Source: an uncultured Opitutia bacterium | GTDB taxonomy: Bacteria; Verrucomicrobiota; Verrucomicrobiia; Opitutales; Opitutaceae | Assembly (NCBI GenBank): GCA_903839035.1 | Contig: CAIMAQ010000126.1 | Location: 1-61,477, forward strand | DNA: 61,477 nt | Direction: 5' to 3' | Part shown: piece by piece, positions 3,653-58,697 of the stretch | Numbering within the stretch: position 1 is the first letter of the stretch | Layout of the letters: every line of letters begins with the position of its first letter | Made by a program: the position numbers and the translations under genes | Notes under the pieces: generated by a model | The model's input: only the letters and a program-made list of their open reading frames with translations | Database searches by the model: none | Told to the model about the DNA's origin: nothing

Positions 3653-3755
3653 TTGCCCACGGAACACACGGAATTGTAAAATCCAGCGGCGAGAATTGCC
3701 GGTCTTCGCCATGATCCTTCGGTTTTTCCGTGTCATCCGTGTGTTCCGTGGGCAA
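3653..3755. repeat. Intergenic palindromic element A (9-nt unit)
   Basis: Two perfectly complementary 20-nt arms lie at 3653-3672 and 3736-3755 with a 63-nt spacer. The right side reads as a degenerate 9-mer array (TCCGTGTCA, TCCGTGTGT, TCCGTGGGC); the left arm is its complement. Read through in frame it gives the PRNTRN...FRVFRG-type peptide often seen in spurious open frames of verrucomicrobial genomes. It fills most of the gap between the permease and the next gene. It could act as a transcript-end hairpin, but there is no T-tract. Confidence 0.85.
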
Positions 3756-4350: not shown

Positions 4351-4509
4351 GTTTTTTTAACCGCGAATGAACGCGAAGTTCGATCTCCGAAATTTATCGC
4401 GGAAGCGCGGAGGGGCGGAAACGCGGAGTTCTGACTTTGGGGTGTTTCCCGGTATTTCCGCTTCTCTGCGGTTCCGCGATAAAAGGCCTAGGCTTCGTGG
4501 TTAAAAACT
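4351..4509. repeat. Nested palindromic element B (8-nt unit inside a 10-nt-unit arm pair)
   Basis: This element fills the gap between the carbonic anhydrase and folA. The inner arms are 4393-4425 and 4453-4484. Both read as an 8-mer array; the left arm has units ATCGCGGA, AGCGCGGA, GGGGCGGA, AACGCGGA, and the right arm is an imperfect reverse complement with the same period. The outer arms, 4351-4368 and 4493-4509, share TTTTTAACC followed by CGCGAA or its near copy. The stretch 4361-4377 is the complement of a motif also seen at 1-20 and 55238-55254. The inner left arm is nearly identical to that at 7561-7592. The folA stop codon lies in its right edge. Confidence 0.85.
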
Positions 4510-7560: not shown

Positions 7561-7640
7561 AATTTATCGCGGAAACGCGGAAGGGCGGAAACACCGGGAA
7601 ATCCAATCCGGGCCCGGAATTTCGCGCTTCCGCGATAGGC
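7561..7640. repeat. Palindromic element C, same family as inner element B (8-nt unit)
   Basis: The left arm starting at 7561 reads as an 8-mer array (ATCGCGGA, AACGCGGA, AGGGCGGA, AACACCGG). It matches the left arm of element B at 4391 onward with only a few substitutions. The right arm, about 7619-7638, is the shorter imperfect complement (TTCGCGCTTCCGCGATAG). It lies between the cyclophilin gene and the S9 homologue, just past the latter's stop at 7658. Confidence 0.85.
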
Positions 7641-24958: not shown

Positions 24959-25918
24959 ATGCCCGTTCCCCAGCGCCTCCGCCTCATCGACTCCCACACC
25001 GGGGGTGAGCCGACGCGGCTGGTCCTGGAGGGCGGTCCCGACCTCGGGGCGGGCCCGCTGAGCGGGCGGGTGGGGCGCTTCCGCGAAAAATTCGATGCGT
25101 GGCGTACCGCCATCGTGTGTGAACCGCGAGGCTCCGACCCGGTGGTGGGCGCGCTGCTGGTGCCGCCCCAGGCGGCGGGCTGCGCCTTCGGCGTCATCTA
25201 TTTCAACAACGCCGGCTATCTCGGCATGTGCGGCCACGGCACCATCGGGCTGGTCGCCTCACTGGCGCATCTCGGCCAAATCACCCCGGGCGTGGTGAAA
25301 ATCGACACGCCTGTGGGCGTCATCACCGCCGAATTGCACGCCACGGGCGAAGTCTCCGTCAATAACGTCGCCAGCTACCGCAAGGCCAAGGCCGTGGCCA
25401 TCAACGTCCCCGGCCTCGGCGAGGTTCGCGGCGATGTGGCCTGGGGTGGCAACTGGTTTTTCCTCGTCGCGGACCACGGGTTGAATCTCACGCTCGCGAG
25501 TCTGCCGCAGCTCATGGATTACACCGTGCGCGTGCTCCAGGCGGTCAACGCACAGGGGTTTCCCGAAGTGGACCACGTGGAGCTGTTTGCCGCGTCGGTC
25601 CAGCCGGGCGTGCACAGCCGGAATTTTGTCCTCTGCCCGGGCCTGGCCTACGACCGCTCGCCCTGCGGCACTGGCACCAGCGCCAAGCTCGCCTGCCTCG
25701 CCACCGACGGCAAACTCGCCGAGGGCGCCGCCTGGGTGCAGGAGAGCGTGATCGGCAGCAGGTTTACGGCCCGCTACCGCTGGCTCGACCGTGCGAAGGG
25801 TGAGGTCGCCCCGACGATCACGGGCACGGCCTTTGTCACCGCGGAAACAACCCTGCTGCTCGACCCGCGCGACCCGTTTTGCTGGGGGATTGGCGCGCCG
25901 CAGTTAAAAGTTGAGTGA
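24959..25918 (+). CDS. 4-hydroxyproline 2-epimerase
   Basis: This 319-residue member of the proline racemase family probably converts trans-4-hydroxy-L-proline to cis-4-hydroxy-D-proline. The two catalytic cysteines are seen: the first in GYLGMCGHGTIG and the second in DRSPCGTGTSAKLACLA near 240. The ATG at 24959 gives MPVPQRLRLIDSHTGGEPTRLV, the normal N-terminus; an earlier start would add 24 unrelated residues. The gene heads a four-gene pathway cluster that fits hydroxyproline rather than proline racemase or the dehydratase members. Its last codons (LKVE, stop) lie in the left arm of element D. Confidence 0.9.
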   Translation: MPVPQRLRLIDSHTGGEPTRLVLEGGPDLGAGPLSGRVGRFREKFDAWRTAIVCEPRGSDPVVGALLVPPQAAGCAFGVIYFNNAGYLGMCGHGTIGLVASLAHLGQITPGVVKIDTPVGVITAELHATGEVSVNNVASYRKAKAVAINVPGLGEVRGDVAWGGNWFFLVADHGLNLTLASLPQLMDYTVRVLQAVNAQGFPEVDHVELFAASVQPGVHSRNFVLCPGLAYDRSPCGTGTSAKLACLATDGKLAEGAAWVQESVIGSRFTARYRWLDRAKGEVAPTITGTAFVTAETTLLLDPRDPFCWGIGAPQLKVE

Positions 25919-25994
25919 TGAAGGTTGAAAGCCGTACCCGGGGGCTGACTGCAATTGGTCCTGCCTTTCAACTTTCAACCTTCCACATTCAACT
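25909..25994. repeat. Palindromic element D (7-nt unit), overlapping the epimerase stop
   Basis: The arms 25909-25931 and 25972-25994 match at 20 of 23 pairs with a 40-nt spacer. Both show 7-nt periodicity; the right arm is TTTCAAC, TTTCAAC, CTTCCAC, ATTCAAC. The left arm includes the last three codons of the epimerase gene. It lies between the epimerase and the dehydrogenase gene and resembles the LQPSTFN-type repeat seen in other genomes. Confidence 0.85.
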
Positions 25995-48711: not shown

Positions 48712-50375
48712 ACCTCACCTGGTATATACTCAAAAAGGATTTCGTCCGGCTCCGTCTGCCGCTGGCGCTTTGGGTCATCCTGATGGTGGGACGCTTTTTG
48801 GTGGGTGACCGGATTCTCCGCGTGGAGAACAGCGACCTGGACGCGCTCCAAGTCACCCTCGGCACGCTGGGTGCGATGCACAACGTGCTGTTTGGATTGC
48901 AGCTGATTCTCTGCTGCGTGCTCGTTGCCGCCCTGATTCATGAGGATTCGGTGGTCGGAGAGAATGCCTGGTGGGTCACGCGGCCGATTTCGGGGGCCCG
49001 GTTGCTGGGGGCGAAGCTCGTCGGGCTGGTCCTGTTCTTCTGGGTGCTGCCCCAGGTGGTGTCGCTGCCCTGGTGGCTCTATTCGGGTTTTGATCGCCGG
49101 GCCATCGGCGGGGCCGTGATCCAACTGGCGTATACTCAAGCGGCATTGAGCCTGTTGGTGTTGGTGGTGGCGGTGCTTACGGCGAACGCGGCGCGTTTCG
49201 TGGCGATGGTGCTCTTGCTGGTGTTCGCCTGGATGTGCGGTTTCATCACTTTCCTGGCGCACTCGCCGGATGTCCCGCTGGGCGTGACGCAAACCCGGGC
49301 GCTGGCCGGCGTGGTGCTGTCCCTTGCGGTCATCGCGCTGGTGGTGGGGCATCAATTTCTGACCCGGCGGCGGGGTCGCTCCTGGGTGATGTTTTCCGTG
49401 GGTTTTGTCCTGATGCTCCTGCTGGCGAACTTCTGGCCTTGGGATTGGTCGCGCTGGGCCCTCTGGCGGGGCAGTGAACCGCCAGCCCTGGCGCGCGTGA
49501 CCGTCGCACCGACCGGCGAGGTGGCTTTCACCAAGGTGGGTTCCAACCTGGATCCGTCCCTGGTCCGGATGGAAATGGGTTTTCGCTACGTGAATCTGCC
49601 CGGAGACTATTCCCTGAATTTCGGCAGCGTCACCGGCACCTTGCGCTGGCCGGACGGCACGATGCAAAAACGGACGGGCTGGATTCAATCCTATCCCATG
49701 GCGATCAGCTGGCACATCATGGGCCTAAGGGCGCCGGCGGGGGTCAGTCCGGAAGAGTGGCGGAACAGTGCGCAACGCCGGGGGGACGCCGCCATAATTT
49801 TTATTCCCGGCTCGTATGCGGCGAAGCTTCGTCAGCAGGCGCCGGCGTGGACGGGCGAACTCGAGCTCGCGGCCTATCACGGGGAACTCGTGGCCGAGGT
49901 CCCGTTCCGGGAGGGAGCAGCCGACGGCCGGGCCGGGCACAAGGTCCGCGTCATGCGGATTGAACACCTGGAGAGTGGCAGCTTGGTCGTGAATTTGGCC
50001 GAGTCAGTACCCATCCCGGCCGGCGAAGACCTGCCTATCCCGCTGGATATCGCGACCCGCCGGCGCCCCCCGGCGTGCTATGTTTTAAGCAGCCGGGACC
50101 GGACCAAGTTTGTCCTGCTGCGGCCTTACGCGGAAAGCGGGACGTTCGTGAACTCGGTGGTGGTCCTGCGCAGCACCTTCAGCGTGAATGTCGGGCAGTT
50201 GGAGAATCCGGCGGATCCCCACTGGCTCGATCAGGCGGAAGTGTTGAAAGTCGCCTATTGGTCGGTGGGATCGCTGGTCCGGCCGGCTCACAGCGACGGA
50301 CTGCATGAAACCCAATTCAGGAATGGCCACCGGGTGGAGCCGGCCACCGCGCCCAAGCCAGCTCCCGGAACCTAG
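48708..50375 (+). CDS. ABC-2 type membrane protein with a large extracytoplasmic part
   Basis: This 555-residue protein has about six hydrophobic helices in the first 245 residues (WYILKKDFVRLRLPLALWVILMVGRF; LFGLQLILCCVLVAALIHEDSV and others). A soluble beta-rich region follows (about 260-540) without transmembrane spans. The N-terminal half looks like an ABC-2 permease. The C-terminal half was not recognised and could be an extracytoplasmic substrate or sensor domain. Its start overlaps the ATPase stop by 4 bp. Its TAG lies in a CTAG tetramer that also forms the stop of the convergent helicase gene. Confidence 0.78.
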   Translation: MNLTWYILKKDFVRLRLPLALWVILMVGRFLVGDRILRVENSDLDALQVTLGTLGAMHNVLFGLQLILCCVLVAALIHEDSVVGENAWWVTRPISGARLLGAKLVGLVLFFWVLPQVVSLPWWLYSGFDRRAIGGAVIQLAYTQAALSLLVLVVAVLTANAARFVAMVLLLVFAWMCGFITFLAHSPDVPLGVTQTRALAGVVLSLAVIALVVGHQFLTRRRGRSWVMFSVGFVLMLLLANFWPWDWSRWALWRGSEPPALARVTVAPTGEVAFTKVGSNLDPSLVRMEMGFRYVNLPGDYSLNFGSVTGTLRWPDGTMQKRTGWIQSYPMAISWHIMGLRAPAGVSPEEWRNSAQRRGDAAIIFIPGSYAAKLRQQAPAWTGELELAAYHGELVAEVPFREGAADGRAGHKVRVMRIEHLESGSLVVNLAESVPIPAGEDLPIPLDIATRRRPPACYVLSSRDRTKFVLLRPYAESGTFVNSVVVLRSTFSVNVGQLENPADPHWLDQAEVLKVAYWSVGSLVRPAHSDGLHETQFRNGHRVEPATAPKPAPGT

Positions 50376-52936
50376 TTTGAGCCCCGCAGCCACGCGGCGA
50401 GGTCGGCGTCGGTGAGGACGTTGGCGCCGAACTGGTAGTCAGGGGCGAGGAGGCTCGCGTAGGCGGGTTCGAGGAAGCGGCGGCAGTGCAGGATCACGCG
50501 GGCGCGCTGGCCGGGCGCGCGCACGAGGCGGCCAAGGGCCTGGTTCACCTTGGTCATGCCGGGAATCTGGTACACGCGGCGGAACGCGGCCTCGCGGCCG
50601 AGCGGCGAGAATTCCGCCAGCCGGGCGCGCTGGATGGCGTTTACCTCGGGCAGCGCGGGGCCGACGACCATCGCATGGGTCACGCGGCCGCCCAGCGCAT
50701 CAATGCTCTCGGCGAAACTCGAGCCGAGTACGAGGAAGAGCGCGTCGGTGAACGCGAGTGACTGCTCGACCCACGCGGTCTGCGCGGCGAGCTCGCGGAG
50801 GCGGGGCTGCACCGCTACCTTCACGGGCGCGAGCCGCTCGAGTTCCTGTGCAACGGACTCGGCGTAGGCATAGGAGGGGAAAAAAACGGCGACGGGACCA
50901 TTCGCCGCGGCTTGCAGTGCGGCAATCGTGGCGGCGGTGGTCGCGAAGTAACTCGCGCGCTGCTGAAAGGTCGTGTCCACGCGCGCGTCCACCGCCACAT
51001 CGTAGGCGCCGTCGCGCCAGGGCGTTTGCGCAGTCACCTGCGCAAACGCGGAGATGGGAGAGGGAAGATGGGAGATGGGGGCGGAGCTTGGAGAGGTCAG
51101 GTTGGATCGACTTCCATCTCCCATCTCCCATCTGCCATCTCCGGCGGCGAAGCCGCACGATTCGGCGAACTCGGCCTGCGGGGTGAGCGTCGCGCTGGCG
51201 AGGACCACGCCGCCGTACTCGCGGAGGGTGGCGCCGATGGCGTCGGCGGCGTCAATGCAGGTGAAGGCAAGTTCGCCGGGACGCGGACACCAGAGGAGTT
51301 TTTTCAGGCGCGAATCGGCGAGCCATTCGCCGAGCTGCTGGGTTTGCCAGAGCTGGTCACTGAACTGCGGGCCGAGCGCGGCGTAGTCGAGCGGGAGGTC
51401 GCCGAGGAATTCGGCGATCTTGGCGAGCGTGTCGGTGACGTCGGCCTCGAGGGCGGGATCGAGGGCGTCCACGGGCTGCAGGGCGAGGAGGAGCTGGGTC
51501 CAGCTTTCCCACGCGCGCACGAGCGGCGCGGCGGCGTTGACGTGATCAAGCTCGGCGAGCAGGGCCGAGGCGTCGTTCGCGCGGGCGGTGTGCGAGTGGG
51601 CGTCGGCGACGCGCGAGGGCAGGTTATGGGCCTCGTCGAGGAGGAGAAGCGTGCGGGCGGGATCGAAGCCGGGCTGGTTATAGAACAGCGGGCGGTTGCG
51701 CGGGGCGAAGACGTAATTGTAGTCGCCGATCCACACGTCGTTGAAGGCGAGGGCGGCACGGGTGATCTCGTAGGGGCAGATCCGGGTGTCGCGGCCGGCA
51801 GTGCGCAGCGTCTCAAGGTCGCGCGCGTGGTTTTCGAAGCGGTAAAAGCGGGTTAGACCGCTGGCGGGCCAGCGTTCCTCGAGGCGGTCGAGATAGCTGC
51901 AGGATTCGCGCACGCAGTGGAAGACGGCGTTGATGCAGTGCTCGCTCTTGTTGCGGACATGCCAGACCGCGACTGGAGTCGCGGTGGGTGATGGGTTATT
52001 GGTGATGGGTGATGGGCTGGAGGCTTCAGAACCTATGACCGATGACCCATCACCCATGACCTGCAGCGTCCTCACCACCTGCAGCTGCCCGGTGGATTTG
52101 CTCGTCAGATAGAGGGCGCGGTCGAAGTGGCCGGCGCGGAGCTGGCCAAGGGCAAACTCGAGGAGGACGCCGGTTTTGCCGAAGCCGGTGGGCGCCTCGA
52201 AGAGCACGAGCGGGTGCTGTTCGAACGCCGTGGTCAGCTCGACCTGGGTCGTCTCCTGACCGGGGCGCAGGACGGCGAAGGGCGAGTGAAAGTGGAGGTC
52301 GCGCAGGCGCTCGCGGGCGCGCAGGCGGAGGTTGAGAAATTCGGCGACCCGCTCGAGCTGGACCTGGAAGATCGATTCGTCGGCGGGCGTGAGCGGGACG
52401 GTCTGGGCGAGTCCGCTGGAGGTTTCGACGAACACCAATTCCGCGCGGAGCGTGGAGCGGGTGATGGGCGCTGGGTGATGGGCAATGGGTGCGATTTCCG
52501 CGCTGGCTGGGGCATGGGGAGCTGATGGCTGATCGCGGACGGCTGACAGCCGCCACAGCGTGAGGTAACTCGCGAGCTGGACGAAATAGCCGGGGTAATC
52601 GGCGCGGAGGGCGGCCTCGTCGGTGGGGAGGGGGCGGGTGACGGTCTTGATTTCGCGCAGCGTGACGGTGCCGGGGTCGCGGAGGAGCTGGTCGATCCGG
52701 CCGGTGAGGGTGATCGTCCAGCCGCCGTGAAAAATACTGCCCGCGATCACGAGTTCGAACTCGGCGGTGGGCGTCTCGGCGGCGGCGCGGGCGCGGAGTT
52801 CGTTGTGCCAGTGCGTGCCGAGCTGGGCGCGCCAGAGGCCCGCGTGGCCGCTGCCGGCGTCATGCGGGCCGGTGGTGAAGTCGGCGAACTCGCCGACACT
52901 CAGACTGGCGGTGCGCTGGTCGAGGTTGAATTCCAT
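50372..52936 (-). CDS. PD-(D/E)XK-like nuclease fused to an XPD/DinG-type Fe-S helicase
   Basis: In this 854-residue protein residues 60-130 read TGRIDQLLRD...TLREIKTVT (D82, E95-x-K97) and then YPGYFVQLASYLTLW. This is the core of a PD-(D/E)XK nuclease fold of the RecB/Cas4 kind. A superfamily 2 helicase follows, with Walker A EAPTGFGKTG (249-255), four cysteines C334, C341, C346 and C387 fitting an Fe-S cluster, DEAH at 434-437, LASATLTPQ, and NQALGRLVRAPGQRAR near the end. Activity on DNA ends or branched DNA is an inference. Three in-frame low-complexity inserts (about 150-159, 294-317, 599-629) are encoded by heptamer repeats (see findings). Neighbours on the same strand include a RecO-like gene. 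Confidence 0.82.
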   Translation of the reverse strand: MEFNLDQRTASLSVGEFADFTTGPHDAGSGHAGLWRAQLGTHWHNELRARAAAETPTAEFELVIAGSIFHGGWTITLTGRIDQLLRDPGTVTLREIKTVTRPLPTDEAALRADYPGYFVQLASYLTLWRLSAVRDQPSAPHAPASAEIAPIAHHPAPITRSTLRAELVFVETSSGLAQTVPLTPADESIFQVQLERVAEFLNLRLRARERLRDLHFHSPFAVLRPGQETTQVELTTAFEQHPLVLFEAPTGFGKTGVLLEFALGQLRAGHFDRALYLTSKSTGQLQVVRTLQVMGDGSSVIGSEASSPSPITNNPSPTATPVAVWHVRNKSEHCINAVFHCVRESCSYLDRLEERWPASGLTRFYRFENHARDLETLRTAGRDTRICPYEITRAALAFNDVWIGDYNYVFAPRNRPLFYNQPGFDPARTLLLLDEAHNLPSRVADAHSHTARANDASALLAELDHVNAAAPLVRAWESWTQLLLALQPVDALDPALEADVTDTLAKIAEFLGDLPLDYAALGPQFSDQLWQTQQLGEWLADSRLKKLLWCPRPGELAFTCIDAADAIGATLREYGGVVLASATLTPQAEFAESCGFAAGDGRWEMGDGSRSNLTSPSSAPISHLPSPISAFAQVTAQTPWRDGAYDVAVDARVDTTFQQRASYFATTAATIAALQAAANGPVAVFFPSYAYAESVAQELERLAPVKVAVQPRLRELAAQTAWVEQSLAFTDALFLVLGSSFAESIDALGGRVTHAMVVGPALPEVNAIQRARLAEFSPLGREAAFRRVYQIPGMTKVNQALGRLVRAPGQRARVILHCRRFLEPAYASLLAPDYQFGANVLTDADLAAWLRGSN
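51022..51049. repeat. Perfect 12-bp hairpin beside heptamer insert H1
   Basis: GCGTTTGCGCAG (51022-51033) and its exact complement CTGCGCAAACGC (51038-51049) flank a 4-nt loop within the helicase coding sequence. It touches the start of heptamer array H1 at 51050. Confidence 0.85.
51050..51142. repeat. In-gene palindromic heptamer array H1 (GGGAGAT-like)
   Basis: The left arm 51050-51078 and right arm 51114-51142 match at 26 of 29 pairs. Units of GGGAGAT-like sequence recur. The coding strand is the opposite one, giving residues about 599-629 of the helicase (SHLPSPIS-like). The plus strand has four or more G3 tracts with short loops, a G-quadruplex motif. Confidence 0.88.
51983..52055. repeat. 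In-gene palindromic heptamer array H2 (GGGTGAT-like)
   Basis: The left arm is 51986-52010 and the right arm 52031-52055, 21 of 25 pairs. The left side 51983-52016 is built from GGGTGAT-type heptamers and is 29 of 34 identical to the ybeY copy at 54987-55020. It encodes helicase residues about 294-317, between the Walker A region and the Fe-S cluster. Confidence 0.88.
52459..52489. repeat. In-gene heptamer array H3, single arm (GGGTGAT-like)
   Basis: Five G3 tracts with exact 4-nt loops (GGG TGAT GGG CGCT GGG TGAT GGG CAAT GGG) lie in the helicase gene. They code for residues about 150-159 (HHPAPIT-like). It resembles H2 at 24 of 30 positions but has no clear opposite arm. Confidence 0.85.
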
Positions 52937-53011
52937 TAAGTCACCACGAGGGTACGGTTGCTTTGACTACGGATTTCACGCCAGGACACGGATCAAAAAT
53001 TCGATCTGATA

Positions 53012-53075
53012 TTACAGGAGGTAACGGAGAGAACGGAGAGGTCATCTCTCAGTTGTCTCCGTTATCTCCTGTGAA
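53012..53075. repeat. Intergenic palindromic element F (9-nt unit)
   Basis: The left arm 53012-53040 and right arm 53046-53075 are imperfectly complementary with a 5-nt loop. The left arm is a 9-mer array (TAACGGAGA, GAACGGAGA); the right has its complement. It lies between the helicase and RecO-like genes, preceded by a fragment of another dispersed motif (52965-52995). Confidence 0.85.
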
Positions 53076-53105
53076 AGTAAGTTTTGGGAATTCATTGCGG
53101 GACGA

Positions 53106-53735
53106 TCAATCCAGCAGGATCTCGGTGTGGCCGGTGAGGTATTCCTCGAGGCGTTTTTGCAGGCGGGCGACGACGGCGAGGGTGGCGGTTTGCTCGGCGA
53201 GCGGGCGGTTGAGCAGGGTGGCAACCGCCTCGCGGTCGGCGACGGGCAGGGTGGGGAACCACTGCTGCTTCACGGGGTAGCCCTCGTCGCGGGCGAAGCA
53301 GTAGAGGCTCTTGAACCACACGAAGTCCGGCCGCGCGCCTGCGGCGAACGAGGCGAAGGCCTGCCGGAGAAGGGCGGCGACCTGCTGGCGGCCGTCCTCG
53401 TGCACGGGATTGCGCGCGACGAGGGCGGCGAGGGCGGAGGCGTGGCGGAGGGTTTCGTAGCTGCGGCCGAGGTCGGCATGGCGGGTAACGAGGCGCGTCT
53501 CTTGCACGAACCAGGTCTGGCCCTGGTTGGAACTCTCCAGCCGGAGCGAAACCTCGTCGAACAGGTCGAGCGCAACGGTGGTGGACCCGGTCTTGCCCGT
53601 GGTGCGCTTGGGCAGCCGCTGGTGAACGAGCAGCGCGCCGTGCTCGGCGGAGAAAACGTTGAAGCCCTGGAACGAGTCGGAGGGCGGACGCTTCAGCAGC
53701 ACGAAGGCGTCGGTCTGGAGCGGGAGGCCGGGCAC
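53106..53735 (-). CDS. recO: RecO-like DNA repair protein
   Basis: This 209-residue protein is like RecO. An N-terminal OB-fold-like part (FQGFNVFSAEHGALLVHQRLPKR) contains strands ALDLFDEVSLRLE and SNQGQTWFVQETRLV. A helical C-terminal region includes YETLRHASALAALVARNPV and WFKSLYCFARDEGYPVKQQWF. The usual zinc cysteines of RecO are not seen. RecO cooperates with RecF, present at 10.4 kb, at single-strand gaps. The match is by fold pattern and by the neighbourhood, so the assignment is moderate. It starts 4 bp after the DUF502 gene in the same direction. Confidence 0.6.
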   Translation of the reverse strand: MPGLPLQTDAFVLLKRPPSDSFQGFNVFSAEHGALLVHQRLPKRTTGKTGSTTVALDLFDEVSLRLESSNQGQTWFVQETRLVTRHADLGRSYETLRHASALAALVARNPVHEDGRQQVAALLRQAFASFAAGARPDFVWFKSLYCFARDEGYPVKQQWFPTLPVADREAVATLLNRPLAEQTATLAVVARLQKRLEEYLTGHTEILLD

Positions 53736-53739
53736 ACGC

Positions 53740-54405
53740 TTAGGCCGGGTCGGCTGGTTTCCTGGCGGACTCGGCCCGGTGGGGCGGGACCACGGCGCCG
53801 CCGGAAATGACCATCTTCATGCCGTCACCGACGGACATATCGAGCTCGGTGATCTCGGTGGGCGGGAAAAACAGGACGAAGCCGCTGGTGGGGTTGGGCG
53901 AGGTGGGCACGAAGACCGCCCAGAGCTCCCGGCCGGCGCGGGCCTGGGCCTCCGCCTGCGTCTTGCTGGTGAGAAAGCCGAGCGTCCAGACGCCAGGGCG
54001 GGGGTATTGGACGAGGACGACGCGGCTGAAGAGGTTGCGGTTTTGGGAGCCGAAGGTCGCGACGACTTGCTTGACCGAGCCGTAGACCGTGCTGACGCCC
54101 GGGATGCCGGTGATGACGCGCTCGCCGAGGTCGAGGAGGTACTTGCCGAACAGGTAGTGGGAGATGAAGCCAAAGAGCGTGATCAGGATGCAGACCACGA
54201 GGGTGACGGCGACGTCCCAGACGAAGGGAATGCTCTGGAGCCGGAGGGGCAGGACGAGGTCGAACAGCGGCCGGAAACTCCCGCCCACGACCCCGATGAT
54301 CCAGATGAAGCCATAGATGGTGACGGCGAGCGGCGCGAGCAGCAGGATGCCCGAGAAAAACGCGGTGCGGACGGTGACGATGTGCTGGGTCGAGCGGATG
54401 GTCAT
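53740..54405 (-). CDS. DUF502 family membrane protein
   Basis: This 221-residue protein has two hydrophobic helices near the start (FFSGILLLAPLAVTIYGFIWIIG and WDVAVTLVVCILITLFGFI). The conserved signature GERVITGIPGVSTVYGSVKQVVATF lies near residue 95, and VVLVQYPRPGVWTLGFLTSK near 125. ITELDMSVGDGMKMVISGGAVVP is near 190. These are typical of DUF502, which has no settled role. The end is rich in Pro/Ala. No partner gene suggests a task. Confidence 0.85.
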   Translation of the reverse strand: MTIRSTQHIVTVRTAFFSGILLLAPLAVTIYGFIWIIGVVGGSFRPLFDLVLPLRLQSIPFVWDVAVTLVVCILITLFGFISHYLFGKYLLDLGERVITGIPGVSTVYGSVKQVVATFGSQNRNLFSRVVLVQYPRPGVWTLGFLTSKTQAEAQARAGRELWAVFVPTSPNPTSGFVLFFPPTEITELDMSVGDGMKMVISGGAVVPPHRAESARKPADPA

Positions 54406-54473
54406 GGGTCGCGCCTAGGGTCGGTGAATCCCGCCCCGACGCAAAGTTTTTTGCGCGCCTTAAAGGTGCCGGG

Positions 54474-54502
54474 GTCGTTTTCACTTATTAAGTGAAACCG
54501 AC
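54474..54502. repeat. 14-bp near-perfect palindrome in the DUF502-ybeY gap
   Basis: The arms 54474-54487 and 54489-54502 match in 13 of 14 pairs around a single-base centre. The gap 54406-54641 has no gene; it also holds two perfect 7-bp hairpins (54578-54584/54589-54595 and 54617-54623/54629-54635). It may be an operator for the DUF502 transcript or a transcript-end structure for ybeY. Confidence 0.55.
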
Positions 54503-54641
54503 ATGGGAGGAGGGCGGGCGGATTAAATGGTCAGCCGAGGGAGGAATGTTCCGCCTGACCCCGGATCGGTTCTCCCCACCGGTCTGAGGACCGGTTCTTG
54601 CGATCGCCTGGGCCAACCCAAGGATCGGCCTTGGGCCGGCG

Positions 54642-55160
54642 CTAGCGGAGCGAAGAAAACACCGGGAGGGCCCCCGCGGAGCTCAAAAGCTTCATGGCCC
54701 GGGCCTCGGCGCGGCGCATCTGGCGCTTTTTGGCGGGATGGAGGTCGTCGTAGCCGGCGAGGTGGAGCCAGCCGTGGACAAGGTAGAGGGTGAGTTCGGC
54801 GGAAAAATCTCGGCGAGGGCCGACTTCGCGGATGGCGGCGTCGGCGGAGACGCAGATTTCACCGGCGGTGCCTTGGGTGGGATCGCCTTCGAAGGTGATG
54901 ACGTCGGTGGGCGTCGGGTCGGCCAGGAAGTCGGCGTGGAGTTGGGCGAGGGCGGGGTCGGTCAGGAACACCACCGACAGTTCGGTGGTGGGCGATAGGT
55001 TATGGGCGATGGGCGATGGGTTCTTTTTCGGCGAGGCGGCGATTCGATTCGGGCGAAAAGCCGCCAAGTTCGCGTCCAGGGTGTGGATCACGCGGGCCAC
55101 GGCGCGGCGGTTGAGGCGCAGGCGGGGATGGCGGTTGGCGATCAGGATTACGCGGGGCAT
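54642..55160 (-). CDS. ybeY: Endoribonuclease YbeY (rRNA maturation)
   Basis: This 172-residue metal-dependent RNase is needed for 16S rRNA 3' end maturation. The zinc motif HGWLHLAGYDDLHPAKKRQM lies near residue 139, and DVITFEGD near 87. The ATG at 55160 (MPRVILIANRHPRL) was preferred. An insert at about 44-59, encoded by heptamer array 54987-55020, lies between the first helix and the LSVVFLTD strand; most family members lack it. It is the last gene of the phoH-pgpH-ybeY order. Confidence 0.94.
   Translation of the reverse strand: MPRVILIANRHPRLRLNRRAVARVIHTLDANLAAFRPNRIAASPKKNPSPIAHNLSPTTELSVVFLTDPALAQLHADFLADPTPTDVITFEGDPTQGTAGEICVSADAAIREVGPRRDFSAELTLYLVHGWLHLAGYDDLHPAKKRQMRRAEARAMKLLSSAGALPVFSSLR
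54987..55020. repeat. In-gene heptamer array in ybeY (GGGCGAT-like)
   Basis: Heptamers GGGCGAT, AGGTTAT, GGGCGAT, GGGCGAT and GGG match the H2 left side (51983-52016) at 29 of 34 bases. It codes residues about 47-58 of YbeY (PSPIAHNLSPT). G3 tracts are separated by short loops. Confidence 0.85.
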
Positions 55161-55173
55161 TGAAGGCGGATAT

Positions 55174-55267
55174 GTGGCCCGCGAATCACGCAAAATGACG
55201 CGAAACAACAGAAGACGTCGGAGTGACCGTTTCAGAATTCGCGTTCATTCGCGTGTTTCGCGGCCAC
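55174..55267. repeat. Intergenic palindromic element G (9- to 10-nt unit)
   Basis: The left arm 55174-55204 and right arm 55238-55267 are imperfectly complementary (GTGGCC-CGCGAA type at both ends). The right arm contains the stretch 55238-55254 that also occurs, slightly changed, at 1-20 and, as complement, at 4361-4377. It lies between ybeY and the HD phosphodiesterase gene. Confidence 0.85.
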
Positions 55268-55278
55268 ATCAATCGGGC

Positions 55279-57642
55279 TTAGGCCTTGGCTTCGGTCGTG
55301 GGCGACTGCTCCGCGGCGGGATAGGCGACGCGGGCGTGGAGCATGTTGAGCAGCGTGAACTGGAAGCTGTTCTTCACCTTGTTCAGTTCCTCGAAGGTGA
55401 GCGGGGCCTCGTCCAGTTGGCCGGCGGCGATGCGGTCGCCGACGATGCGGTCGATGAGCGGGACGAGCTGGCCGGCGCTGACGGAGCGGAGCGAGCGCGT
55501 CGCGGCCTCGACGCCGTCGGCGAGCGAGATGATGGCGCTCTCCTTGAACTGCGGTTTCGGACCGTCGTAGCGGTAGGCCGCTTCCACCGGGGGCGCGAGC
55601 AGCGGGATCGGGTGCGGGAGGTTCTTGACCGGGAACGGCACCCGGGACTGCTCGACGGCGCGCAGGTAAAACGAGCGCACGAGGGTGGTGCCGTGGTGCT
55701 GCTGGATGACGTCTATTGCGGCGCGGGGCAGGCGGTGCCGGTTGGCGAGTTCCACGCCGTCGGTCACGTGCGCCTTGATGATCTGCGCAGAGGCCATGGG
55801 CGTGAGACCATCGTGCGGGTTAACGCTTTCGCGCTGGTTCTCGGTGAAATAGGCGGCATGGGGCGTCTTGCCGATGTCATGGAACAGCGCGCAGACGCGG
55901 GCGAGCAGCGGGTTGGCGCCGATGGCGTTGGCGGCGTTCTCGGCGAGTTGGGCGACGACGAGCGAGTGGTGGTAGGTGCCGGGCGCCTCGAGCTGCTGCT
56001 GGCGGAGCAGCGGGTGGTTGTAGTCGGTGAGCTCGAGCAGGGTGATGTCGGTGGTGCGCTTGAAGAGCGACTCCAGCACGGGCAGCACGCCGACGACGGC
56101 CATGCCGGTGAGCAGCCCGGTGGCAACGGCGGCGGTCATCTGGCGGGCGAGCGTGGCGAACGGCACCTGGTCGGCGAAACCGATGGGCAGGGCGAAGAGC
56201 GCGAGCGTGAGCCCGCCGGCGGCGGCGGCGCGGACGACGCGCCCGCGCTTGTGCACGACGCGGCAGCCGAAGATGGCGACGAGTGAGGCGAGGAAGGTAA
56301 GCACCACGAGGTCGAGCCGGTTGCCGTAGATAACGCCGGTGAAGATCGAGATGAGCAGCGCCATGAAGATGGCGGACCCGGCGTCGATCAGGATCGCGAC
56401 GATGAGCGGGGCGAGGGCGGTGGGAGCGACGTACGGCAGGGTCGAGGCCCAGGAGCCGTCGTGGATGAAGAAATCGAGACCGCCGATGGAGTAGACCAGC
56501 CGCACGAGCGCGAGATTGAAGATCGTAACGAGCGCGAGGAGGCCCAGCCGGCCGTTGCGCTGGAGGGTTTCGGCGTCCTCGAGCCGGATGTAGAGGACGC
56601 TGGCGATGACCATCGCGAGCACAAGGAGGATGCGGCCAAAGAGGGTGAGGCCCTCGTCAAACGCCGTGTCGGTGTGCTCGCGCAGGAAGCGGCGGTAGGC
56701 CATGAGCATCTCGAACTGCCCGGGCGAGACGCGTTCACCGGGCTCGATGATCGTCTGGCCGCGGGCGATGCTGACGAGCACGGGCTTCACCTGGCGGCGG
56801 GCTTCGGTTTCGCGGGCCTGCGTGGCGTCACGGTCGAAGGCCAGGTTGGCCGTCAGGCCGGCGCGAAAGAAGCGGAAGAGCGCCAGCGCGGTCGGGCGCG
56901 GCACGCCCTCGACGGCAAGGCTGACGCGCAGAAAGGTCATGGCCTCCTCCAGCGATTGAACGGGTCGGAGCGCGATCTCGCCGGTCGGTCGCACGACTTG
57001 GAAAACGGTGACATTGCCCGGGGCGAAGCCGCCGAGATTGTCGTCATGCACGCCTTCGGCGGCGATGTCGCGGAGGGCGGCGAGGCCGGTGTCGAAGAGG
57101 GCGGCGCGCGCCTTGCCATCACCGGCGGCGAGCACGGCGGCGACATCCTCCGCGTTGGCGTGATAGGGTCCCCGGGTATTGAACGCCTCCACCAAGGTGG
57201 CGAATTCGGCCCGGGGATCATTGAGCAGGAGGGCGTTGGCCGGATGGGTGCGTTCGAACCCCTCCAACTGCACGAGCAGTGCCCGGGCATTGGCGTCGAA
57301 GCGTCGGGACGGCTCCAAGTCGAGCCGGTAAACCGGCGGCAGGCGGTTGACGACCTGCTCGCCCGCGGCGGTGGTCTGTTCGAGACTCTGGTAGGTGAAT
57401 GGCGTCGCCGCGACGACCCGGACGGTGGCGAGCTGGTTGGGCAGGACGGGGACGTTGAGGGTGGTGAGGCCGGCCGAGCTGATGAGCACGATGGCGGCGA
57501 CCGTGGCGACGAAGATGAGCATCGCGACCAGGCGGCTCCGGTCGAAGAATTCGCGCGTGGCGGAGTGGGCCGGCGGGGTGCGACCGGCGCGGCGCGCGCT
57601 GAGGCCGCCGACGAGAAGCTTAAGTTGGTTGCGGACGGACAT
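55279..57642 (-). CDS. pgpH: HD-domain membrane protein, PgpH-like cyclic-di-AMP phosphodiesterase
   Basis: This 787-residue protein of the 7TMR-HD family has one N-terminal helix (SRLVAMLIFVATVAAIVLISSAG), a large extracytoplasmic domain (about 60-320), about seven helices (325-510) and a cytoplasmic HD domain (about 545-720). The HD core is ALFHDIGKTPHAAYF (588-592) with HHSLVVAQLAENAA upstream. Family members degrade cyclic di-AMP. A short insert (SRVPFPVKNLPHPIPLLAPPVE) follows the conserved HGTTLVRSFYLRAVEQ. Its place between phoH and ybeY is the widely conserved order. Confidence 0.92.
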   Translation of the reverse strand: MSVRNQLKLLVGGLSARRAGRTPPAHSATREFFDRSRLVAMLIFVATVAAIVLISSAGLTTLNVPVLPNQLATVRVVAATPFTYQSLEQTTAAGEQVVNRLPPVYRLDLEPSRRFDANARALLVQLEGFERTHPANALLLNDPRAEFATLVEAFNTRGPYHANAEDVAAVLAAGDGKARAALFDTGLAALRDIAAEGVHDDNLGGFAPGNVTVFQVVRPTGEIALRPVQSLEEAMTFLRVSLAVEGVPRPTALALFRFFRAGLTANLAFDRDATQARETEARRQVKPVLVSIARGQTIIEPGERVSPGQFEMLMAYRRFLREHTDTAFDEGLTLFGRILLVLAMVIASVLYIRLEDAETLQRNGRLGLLALVTIFNLALVRLVYSIGGLDFFIHDGSWASTLPYVAPTALAPLIVAILIDAGSAIFMALLISIFTGVIYGNRLDLVVLTFLASLVAIFGCRVVHKRGRVVRAAAAGGLTLALFALPIGFADQVPFATLARQMTAAVATGLLTGMAVVGVLPVLESLFKRTTDITLLELTDYNHPLLRQQQLEAPGTYHHSLVVAQLAENAANAIGANPLLARVCALFHDIGKTPHAAYFTENQRESVNPHDGLTPMASAQIIKAHVTDGVELANRHRLPRAAIDVIQQHHGTTLVRSFYLRAVEQSRVPFPVKNLPHPIPLLAPPVEAAYRYDGPKPQFKESAIISLADGVEAATRSLRSVSAGQLVPLIDRIVGDRIAAGQLDEAPLTFEELNKVKNSFQFTLLNMLHARVAYPAAEQSPTTEAKA

Positions 57643-57686
57643 GAGGTAAATTTTCGATTCCCGGACGCGGTAGAAGGGGGGGCGGA

Positions 57687-58697
57687 TCAGGATTTGCCGG
57701 CGGCACCGGTGTCCGGGTTCATCGGGTTCCGGTACTGGTCGTAGGCCTCGATGATCTTCTGGACGAGCGGGTGGCGGACGACGTCGGCGCCGCTGAAGGT
57801 GTGGAAGTCGATGCCGGGGATGTCGGTGAGGATATGGCGGACCTCGAGGAGGCCGCTGGCCTTGGAGCGCGGGAGGTCGATCTGCGTGATGTCGCCGGTC
57901 ACGACCATCCGCGAGTCCTCGCCGAGACGGGTGAGGAACATCATCATCTGCTCAGCGGTGGCGTTCTGCGCCTCATCAAGGATGATGAACGAATGGGAGA
58001 GGGTGCGGCCGCGCATGTAGGCGAGCGGGGCGATCTCGATGACGCCCTTTTCGGTGAGCCGGGCGGTGTCCTCGGGGTCGAGCATGTCGCCGAGCGCGTC
58101 ATAGAGCGGCCGGAGGTAGGGCAGGATTTTTTCGCGCAGGTCGCCGGGGAGGAAGCCGAGGGTTTCGCCGGCCTCGACGGCGGGGCGGGTGAGGATGATG
58201 CGTTCGACCTCGTTGCGCAGGAGGGCGGAGACGGCGGCGGCCATGGCGAGGTAGGTCTTGCCGGTGCCGGCGGGGCCGATGCCAAAGACGACCGGGTGGG
58301 CGAGCATCGACTGGAGATAGAGTTTCTGGCCGAGGGTTTTCGGGACGATGCTCTTACGGTTGGTGGCGATGACCAGCGGCTCGTCGATGAGGGCGCGCAT
58401 CTGCTCGCCCTCGCCGCGGGCGAATCCGTCGGCGATGCGGTGGAAGTCGGGCGTGCGGATGGTCATGCCCTGGCCGCGGGCCTCGTTGAGGAAGTTGAAC
58501 AGGGCCTCGGTACGGGCGATGGGGCCGGCAGCCTCGGTGGCGGACACGCCGTGGGCGGGCTCGATCTTCAGCCAGCCCTCCCGCGTGATCAGCTTCACGC
58601 CGAGGGTGCGCTCGGCGTGGGCGAGGTTTTCCTCGCGACCGGCATAGAGCGCGGACAGGTGGCGGGGACTGGGAAAATGGAGGGTCTTGGCGGGCAC
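57687..58697 (-). CDS. PhoH-like ATPase
   Basis: This 336-residue protein has a KH-like N-terminal domain and a P-loop ATPase. Walker A is FGIGPAGTGKTYLAMAAAV near residue 138. The RNA-helicase-like strand RIILTRPAVEAGETLGFLPG follows at 167, AYMRGRTLSHSFIILDEAQNA (Walker B) near 225, and VVTGDITQIDLPRSKASGL near 268. PhoH proteins often occur with YbeY and may act in RNA handling. It heads the minus-strand run phoH-pgpH-ybeY. Confidence 0.94.
   Translation of the reverse strand: MPAKTLHFPSPRHLSALYAGREENLAHAERTLGVKLITREGWLKIEPAHGVSATEAAGPIARTEALFNFLNEARGQGMTIRTPDFHRIADGFARGEGEQMRALIDEPLVIATNRKSIVPKTLGQKLYLQSMLAHPVVFGIGPAGTGKTYLAMAAAVSALLRNEVERIILTRPAVEAGETLGFLPGDLREKILPYLRPLYDALGDMLDPEDTARLTEKGVIEIAPLAYMRGRTLSHSFIILDEAQNATAEQMMMFLTRLGEDSRMVVTGDITQIDLPRSKASGLLEVRHILTDIPGIDFHTFSGADVVRHPLVQKIIEAYDQYRNPMNPDTGAAGKS

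What the first reader, a model, noticed from the sequence alone, without database searches (positions are those of the whole stretch)
50372..55160. A heptamer repeat invades coding sequence in frame four times: three in one helicase gene and one in ybeY
Arrays H1 (51050-51142), H2 (51983-52055), H3 (52459-52489) and the ybeY copy (54987-55020) are built from GGG-N-GAT-like heptamers. H2 and ybeY copies agree at 29 of 34 bases; H2 and H3 at 24 of 30. All lie in frame and add Pro/Ser/Thr-rich segments to loop positions without breaking the protein. This resembles the protein-invading palindromic elements of Rickettsia and the heptamer repeats of cyanobacteria, but with a different sequence.
Basis: partly seen in the sequence, partly recalled or inferred. 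Interest (0 to 1): 0.8.

Follow-up and report, generated by a model that had tools for sequence, protein, structure and literature searches.

The report
Seven-base repeats invading bacterial protein loops
In this bacterium, DNA stretches made of a repeated seven-letter word sit in frame inside a DNA-helicase gene, the ybeY gene and other predicted genes, and related species carry different seven-letter words, or none, at the same places in the protein, so these repeats likely spread as small mobile DNA, often predicted to fold as hairpins, that proteins seem to tolerate as new flexible linkers.

Summary
H1 (51049-51143) and H2 (51985-52056) are predicted hairpins with arms of tandem heptamers. 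H3 is a GATGGG array beside a second, GCTGAT array; ybeY carries one array. All are read in frame. They belong to a genome-wide class: in 0.83 Mb of this genome period 7 gave 41 arrays (Markov controls 1 and 0), periods 5, 10, 11 and 13 gave 0, period 8 gave 3. Of 59 listed elements 14 lie inside predicted genes, including a topoisomerase A subunit and an HrpA-like helicase.

The strongest result is comparative. The three helicase loops hold 24 of 34 period-7 segments in 29 other family members, in 8.5% of the bases, but the word differs: GATGGG, TTGAAAG, ATCCGNN, GGACAGA, in one close relative a REP pair, in others nothing. The ybeY loop holds GAAAATC or GATGGG within one genus. A structure model gives all three helicase loops low confidence.

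Tandem heptamers, REPs inside genes and Rickettsia RPEs are known; changing words with a constant period at one protein loop I did not find in ten searches. Best reading: REP-like non-autonomous repeats, mover unknown. New variant of a known kind.

The parts
50372..52936 (-). gene of a helicase of the DinG/XPD kind with an N-terminal PD-(D/E)XK domain, 854 aa, carrying three in-frame repeat segments
   Evidence: PDDEXK_1, DEAD_2, Helicase_C_2; Foldseek best 9kqh, DinG, E 2e-39
51049..51143 (.). H1: two inverted heptamer arrays (word GGGAGAT), predicted hairpin, arms 51049-51078 and 51114-51143, 35 nt between; protein residues about 598-630
   Evidence: z -7.5; residues 599-628 pLDDT < 50
51985..52056 (.). 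H2: two inverted heptamer arrays (word GGGTGAT), predicted hairpin, arms 51985-52010 and 52031-52056, 20 nt between; protein residues about 294-318
   Evidence: z -4.6; 298-318 pLDDT < 50
52459..52491 (.). H3: single heptamer array (GGGTGAT/GGGCAAT), no predicted hairpin on its own
   Evidence: z 0.3
   Evidence: sequence; (136-157 pLDDT < 50 lies between and across the two arrays)
54642..55160 (-). ybeY, rRNA maturation RNase, 172 aa
   Evidence: YbeY, TIGR00043
54987..55022 (.). ybeY array (GGGCGAT), translated ...NPSPIAHNLSPTT, in the stretch before the conserved ELSVVFLTD

Best explanation
These are REP-like, likely mobile and non-autonomous repeats built of tandem seven-base words, about half of them paired with an inverted array and so predicted to fold as hairpins, that lie mostly between genes, in short spacers away from promoters, and in some genes in frame in likely disordered linkers. 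How it works, step by step. (1) Shown: dispersed copies of a few words in one genome, 31 of 59 listed elements with an inverted partner. (2) Inferred: copies reach new sites through a single-stranded, hairpin-stabilised intermediate during replication; the enzyme is not identified. (3) Inferred from placement: selection removes most landings in divergent (promoter) spacers and in folded protein, leaving codirectional and convergent spacers and linkers. (4) Arithmetic plus observation: because 7 and 3 share no factor, an array runs through all three frames every 21 bases and encodes the same seven-residue peptide in any frame, so a word without stop codons on the coding strand cannot add a stop; only total length modulo 3 is left to chance. 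(5) Shown: occupants of one loop differ between close species; inferred: they are lost and replaced often.
For: Period: lag-7 stretches 41 against 1 Markov-3 control in 834,637 bases (0 in a second control). Dispersal: 120 GATGGG-type matches (17 reversed) and 67 GAAAATC-type matches in 3.39 Mb (0 reversed). Hairpins: 31 hairpins and 28 single stretches from 70 segments; arms share locus-specific deviations, 47 of 120 against about 10 expected, an inflated contrast because hairpins were picked for pairing. Placement, by my own gene caller: of 59 elements 33 intergenic, 12 overlapping gene ends, 14 inside genes, in sequence called 91% coding. Of the 45 not inside genes 2 lay at edges; of the other 43, 33 lie between codirectional genes, 8 convergent, 2 divergent (background 239, 49, 100 of 388; Fisher p 0.001). 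In genes: stop-free translations in an AMP-binding enzyme, a VWA/YfbK protein, two E2 acyltransferases, MeaB, exosortase, topoisomerase A subunit, HrpA; one HrpA insert meets a short loop of solved HrpA 9ggr. Loops: 30 of 40 lag-7 segments and 15 of 28 inverted repeats fall in the three helicase loops (8.6% of bases); since the loops were set by the window's own inserts, without it 24 of 34 in 8.5%, and 15 of 30 genomes have at least one. Replacement: H1 holds a heptamer hairpin here, a REP pair in G005 (92% identical helicase) and degenerate GATGGGC in G002 and G009; one arm of the G005 pair equals, 25 of 25 bases, a repeat beside the RAYT gene of the window's genome. Fewest changes on a tree built without the loops: H1 8 (14 of 26 rows labelled), H2 7 (15), ybeY 5 (18).
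Against: No movement was caught: a search for empty sites over 92 elements gave 3 cases, all in the helicase, flanks 69-84% identical, no target-site duplication readable. No shared loop sequence was seen among hairpins (by eye), unlike a typical MITE. No mover: the two PF01797 genes of the genome lie kilobases from the nearest listed heptamer array, and two genomes without PF01797 hits still hold 25 and 12 TTGAAAG-type matches (that pattern has no valid control). Closeness to stop codons is weak evidence: 28 of 33 elements between codirectional genes lie within 35 nt of the upstream stop, but 21 of the 33 also lie within 35 nt of the downstream start, so they mostly fill short spacers; four lie 221-381 nt from the stop. 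28 of 59 elements have no inverted partner found. The word labels on the tree were set by eye, and 12, 11 and 8 of 26 rows (H1, H2, ybeY) were left unlabelled.
Confidence: 0.5

Rival explanations
1. Local birth: arrays arise in place by polymerase slippage with a seven-base step and by template switching that makes the inverted arm; loops and spacers are simply where such noise survives. No element moves.
For: Arrays of many words exist: 105 further heptamer arrays of 74 words in 46 of 80 loci from many phyla. The literature reports heptanucleotides as the commonest long simple repeats in most genomes and proposes polymerase slippage (PMC4679880, section 3 read, citing Mrazek 2007). Arms carry locus-specific deviations.
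Against: Slippage alone does not put one word at dozens of sites: ACCCATC heads 10 and AAAATCG 9 of 70 segments in the sample, and 25 of 61 family genomes hold 10 or more GAAAATC-type matches, one of them (G441) no more than reversed matches.
Confidence: 0.3
2. REP of the usual kind: a variant REP/REPIN population moved by a RAYT (Y1/HUH) transposase.
For: Hairpin form, avoidance of divergent spacers, and a real RAYT-associated REP at the same helicase loop in G005. 53 of 61 family genomes have PF01797 hits; three genomes without hits showed no lag-7 stretch in 200, 100 and 100 kb.
Against: GTAG or CGTC at the stem foot in 2 of 31 heptamer hairpins, against 19% at random ends. RAYT number against word counts: rho 0.25, p 0.048; genomes with none against some p 0.21. 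The RAYT in L008 is flanked by other repeats, not heptamers.
Confidence: 0.12
3. Selected linkers: the peptides have a function and the DNA repeat is a by-product.
For: No frame break was seen in the loops of the 30 helicase genes aligned; in the H1 loop seven relatives share a conserved non-repeat peptide.
Against: Words and lengths change between species of one genus and some have no insert; most copies are not inside genes (45 of 59).
Confidence: 0.05

Closest known systems
Intragenic GTAG/CGTC REPs, highest for GTAG in O. terrae (PMC3733652; passages and section 15 read; genus name Opitutus recalled)
   Same: short palindromic repeats, mostly intergenic, in frame inside genes, many of them DNA-repair genes, in a member of the same phylum; different REPs in recB of two Xanthomonas at about the same site
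   Different: REP stems are not tandem heptamers; the GTAG/CGTC tag is absent here (2 of 31)
Rickettsia palindromic elements, RPE (PMC3767692; abstract and passages read)
   Same: palindromic DNA in open frames without breaking them; orthologues hold inserts at the same sites, sometimes of different RPE type
   Different: RPEs are 100-150 bp elements; here the units are seven-base words and the word changes at one site. No RPE sequence was compared.
Heptanucleotide long simple repeats, cyanobacterial STRR and TAACTGA arrays (PMC4679880, passages and section 3; STRR detail recalled)
   Same: seven-base tandem units, mainly intergenic; the exact GAAAATC array also occurs in Microcoleus, Tychonema and Nostoc records
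   Different: TAACTGA sets are direct repeats with one inverted case of 170, 10 inside ORFs; here 31 of 59 elements have an inverted partner and 14 lie inside predicted genes
GGGAATC heptamers of Xanthomonas and GGGGA(C/T)T of Nostoc (PMC4692102; passages and section 10 read)
   Same: dispersed heptamers, 70 and 75 convergent pairs in two genomes, 11% and 7% intragenic in two Xanthomonas
   Different: one G-rich word there, reported to form G-quadruplexes in vitro; here 8 of 59 elements have a G4-like motif and AT-rich words occur too

Membership tests
GTAG/CGTC REP | GTAG or CGTC tag at one end of the stem | tested here: not met
   2 of 31 heptamer hairpins; random ends 19%
GTAG/CGTC REP | RAYT gene flanked by copies of the repeat | tested here: not met
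   both PF01797 genes of the genome read with flanks; nearest listed arrays are kilobases away on the same contigs
GTAG/CGTC REP | intergenic copies mainly between codirectional and convergent genes, few divergent | tested here: met
   33, 8 and 2 of 43; placement right after stop codons could not be told from filling short spacers
Rickettsia palindromic element | palindrome inserted in open frames without breaking them | tested here: met
   5 hairpins inside predicted genes in the sample, H1 and H2 among them; the other 9 intragenic elements are single arrays
Rickettsia palindromic element | sequence of a known RPE family | not tested
   no RPE sequence was fetched
Heptanucleotide long simple repeats / STRR | tandem unit of 7 bases well above chance | tested here: met
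   41 against 1 control; lags 4, 5, 8, 10, 11 and 13 give 0-3
Heptanucleotide long simple repeats / STRR | several different words in one genome | tested here: met
Xanthomonas GGGAATC heptamers | unit (GGGANTN)n | tested here: not met
   the commonest words differ
non-autonomous mobile element | target-site duplication or precise empty site | tested here: inconclusive
   3 cases, all coding, flanks too diverged

The most novel reading that the evidence does not exclude
Across bacterial phyla there is one class of repeat whose inherited property is its period, seven bases, and not its sequence: an unidentified copying activity with a seven-base step writes and rewrites arrays at permissive sites, so that orthologous protein loops keep the period and change the word, and proteins keep gaining new seven-residue repeat linkers whose frame does not matter.
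Probability: 0.15. Interest if true: 0.85.

Novelty: new variant of a known kind. Interest (0 to 1): 0.62.

Why it matters
It shows repeat DNA supplying protein sequence at the same loops again and again, in genes as conserved as ybeY, a topoisomerase A subunit and hrpA, with different words in close species: a natural record of which loops tolerate new sequence. It also gives a simple reason why a unit of seven can be safer inside genes than its length suggests, since it reads the same in every frame; the literature cited found units that are multiples of three most often there (PMC4679880, citing Mrazek 2007). And it makes an old question testable: why are heptamers so common among bacterial tandem repeats?

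Tried and rejected
RAYT as the mover: suggested by three genomes without PF01797 hits that had no lag-7 stretch in the sampled 400 kb, but two of them hold TTGAAAG-type matches elsewhere and the correlation is weak. Not adopted.

Reversed-pattern control for TTGAAAG is void: the reversed word is a rotation of itself, so those counts have no control.

Perfect heptamer doublets as a measure: swamped by GC-rich chance doublets (101 against 119 in the control); replaced by lag scanning.

Placement right behind stop codons: 28 of 33, but 21 of 33 are equally close to the next start codon, so I keep only the avoidance of divergent spacers.

Stop-free words: 13 of 14 words tried are stop-free on one strand and 7 on both, much as random heptamers (87% and 50%), so there is no sign that words were chosen for it.

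G-quadruplex as the general cause: 8 of 59 elements. Known RNA: Rfam over 49000-57700 gave four microRNA models far below their cut-offs. Clean intergenic empty sites: none found (elements with under 27% A+T were dropped before that count).

YbeY loop words in 120 of 4422 homologues (the best listed): text patterns give GAAAATC 36 and GATGGG 8, and with wider patterns GAAAATC 47, GATGGG 17, TCCGCAC 16, none 10, other 29 of 119 (fragment P0076 dropped). The 43 and 20 changes on that short-protein tree are not used as evidence.

Only period-7 strong hairpins lay inside genes (4 of 13; 0 of 13 with period 8-10; 0 of 27 others); small numbers, and a REP pair does lie in a gene in G005, so not used as proof of frame tolerance. 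One search aligned two unrelated proteins and was not used.

The claim that the pattern is not in print rests, an open-access library only.

Full report
What is there. The window is contig C126 of a 3.39 Mb genome in 126 contigs, 97% complete. The helicase gene (50372-52936, minus) joins a PD-(D/E)XK domain to a DinG/XPD-like helicase. H1 and H2 are predicted hairpins whose arms are tandem heptamers; H3 is one array next to another with a different word; ybeY has one array.

More than chance. In 834,637 bases of the genome the criterion of 19 matches in 24 gives 41 stretches at lag 7 and 1 in an order-3 Markov control; lags 5, 10, 11 and 13 give 0, lag 4 gives 2, lag 8 gives 3; lags 6, 9, 12 and 15 give 6, 6, 7 and 5, as codon periodicity would, and lag 14 gives 7. 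A looser criterion (16 in 21) gives 70 against 4. From these 70, 31 hairpins and 28 single stretches were listed. Strong inverted repeats: 53 (one N-run set aside of 54) in the sample, 0 in 241 kb of simulated sequence; they include a separate REP-like class and units of 8, 9 and 10 bases.

Where the elements lie. By a codon-usage gene caller that I wrote (789 genes, 91% coding), 33 of 59 elements are intergenic, 12 overlap gene ends and 14 are inside genes; H3 fell under the threshold and is not among them. Outside genes they avoid divergent spacers (2 of 43, background 100 of 388). Between codirectional genes 28 of 33 lie within 35 nt of the upstream stop and 21 of 33 within 35 nt of the downstream start: they fill short spacers. 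Genes with inserts besides the two of the finding: an AMP-binding enzyme, a VWA/YfbK protein, two E2 acyltransferases, a MeaB protein, an exosortase, a topoisomerase IV/gyrase A subunit and an HrpA-like helicase. The HrpA alignment to 9ggr shows one insert at a loop where the solved protein has a few residues.

The loops in relatives. The helicase was found in 47 of 57 genomes and YbeY in 54 of 57; 30 loci of each were taken, all of one family. In 30 helicase genes (two of them partial) the three loops make up 6,465 of 75,384 bases and hold 30 of 40 lag-7 segments and 15 of 28 inverted repeats; other lags tried give at most 2 in the loops. The loops were defined by the window's own inserts; without it the count is 24 of 34 in 8.5% of the bases, and 15 of 30 genomes have at least one segment in a loop. 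What fills them differs. H1: GGGAGAT hairpin here; in G005, whose helicase is 92% identical, a pair GTGGGTCGGGGTTTATCCCCGACA / TGTCGGGCGTAAAGCCCGACCCACA, of which the first arm with one more base matches 25 of 25 a repeat beside the RAYT gene in the window's own genome; degenerate GATGGGC in G002 and G009; ATCCGNN words in G004, G006, G007 and G008; a GGACAGA array (lag-7 segment of 93 bases) in G032; other palindromes in G012, G027 and G034; short loops in G011, G030 and G035. H2: GATGGG in G000 and G002 and a GATGGGCGAGAGGC hairpin with 33-base arms in G005; TTGAAAG in G008, G009, G014 and G027; 8-9 residues in G011, G031 and G035. ybeY: GATGGG in G000 and G005, GAAAATC in G002, G004, G008, G009, G011, G015, G035 and, short, G031; a 63-base stretch without repeat in G016, G025, G027, G028, G030, G032 and G033. 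On a tree from 794 columns without the loops (10 of 23 inner branches well supported) the fewest changes are 8, 7 and 5, from 14, 15 and 18 labelled rows of 26; the shuffled means are 9.4, 8.0 and 7.5 and 23, 82 and 8 of 300 shuffles do as well or better, so H1 and H2 words hardly follow the tree while ybeY words do in part. Labels are by eye; GCTCAAC and CTCAACC were counted as two words, and G001, whose H2 stretch is 21 residues without repeat, as none. Results against a pure insert picture: in seven relatives the H1 loop holds a conserved non-repeat peptide, and many loops hold long sequence that is no recognisable repeat.

Structure. The AlphaFold model (26 rows, mean pLDDT 77.7, pTM 0.76) is below 50 at 136-157, 298-318 and 599-628, the three inserts, each between a helix and a strand. 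Low confidence also covers 23-36 and parts of 328-397, so low pLDDT alone does not single out inserts.

Why seven may be tolerated. An array of period 7 passes through all three frames every 21 bases and gives the same seven-residue peptide whatever the frame. Among 14 words tried, 13 are free of stops on at least one strand and 7 on both; random heptamers do about as well (87% and 50%). So frame at entry does not matter for such words; the total length still must be a multiple of three, which selection must sort out. This is inference from arithmetic; no rate was measured.

Beyond the family. In 387 genomes of the phylum GATGGGNGATGGGNGATGG occurs in 19, up to 59 times in one (G331); the reversed pattern occurs in 8 by my reading of the table, up to 5 times. 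GAAAATC-type arrays number 10 or more in 25 of 61 family genomes, one of them no better than its control. An exact 21-base GAAAATC array is in at least 118 stretches of other genomes (scan stopped at its limit), among the 80 listed Nitrospira, Planctomycetota, Acidobacteria, Cyanobacteria, Chloroflexi, Bacteroidetes and Deltaproteobacteria; 24 of the 80 have an inverted partner nearby. After masking the matched arrays, those 80 loci still hold 105 lag-7 stretches of 74 words in 46 loci, against 17 at lag 8, 0-2 at lags 4, 5, 10, 11 and 13, 3-8 at lags 6, 9, 12 and 15, and 61 at lag 14, the double of 7. The loci were selected for one heptamer array, so this shows company, not a census.

Known and new. 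REPs in genes of O. terrae and in repair genes (PMC3733652, section 15), RPEs in Rickettsia (PMC3767692, passages), heptamer arrays with inverted pairs in Xanthomonas (PMC4692102, section 10 and passages) and the general abundance of heptanucleotide repeats (PMC4679880, section 3) are in print. The combination seen here, one period, many words, inverted pairing, and different words at the same protein loop in close species, I did not find in ten searches of an open-access library. The mover, if any, is unknown; confidence in dispersal rather than purely local birth is moderate.

Noticed in passing
window 53014-53072: Strong intergenic hairpin with nine-base units (GGAGAGAAC) between the helicase gene and the next gene; DNA fold z -9.7. 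A sister class with another period.
   Followed up: partly
window 4393-4483, 7565-7637, 3653-3755, 25909-25994: Further inverted repeats with units of 8 (CGCGGAAG), 9 (CACGGAACA) and 7 (TTGAAAG) bases.
   Followed up: partly
window 55168-55273: Inverted repeat with about ten-base units (GCGAATGAAC) just upstream of ybeY, nearly the same at this site in G002 and G005, while the ybeY array differs in word between G002 and the window.
   Followed up: partly
L008 1381-2000 (G000:C57): A short RAYT-like gene (PF01797) flanked by a 12-base unit GTGGGTGGGGCT and by a palindrome one arm of which matches the REP in the G005 helicase loop 25 of 25.
   Followed up: partly
helicase H1 loop in L097, L098, L099, L100, L103, L105, L106: A conserved non-repeat peptide ERLGxLNKRxTKKL...LTSAAxLLRxEEAR fills the loop in seven other genera and was not seen in the window's genus.
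   Followed up: no
window 50372-52936: The helicase is a fusion of a PD-(D/E)XK domain with a DinG/XPD-like helicase, below the cut-off of every NCBIfam model it matched.
   Followed up: no
G331 (same phylum): 59 exact GATGGG triple-array matches in one 6.7 Mb genome, the most of 387.
   Followed up: no
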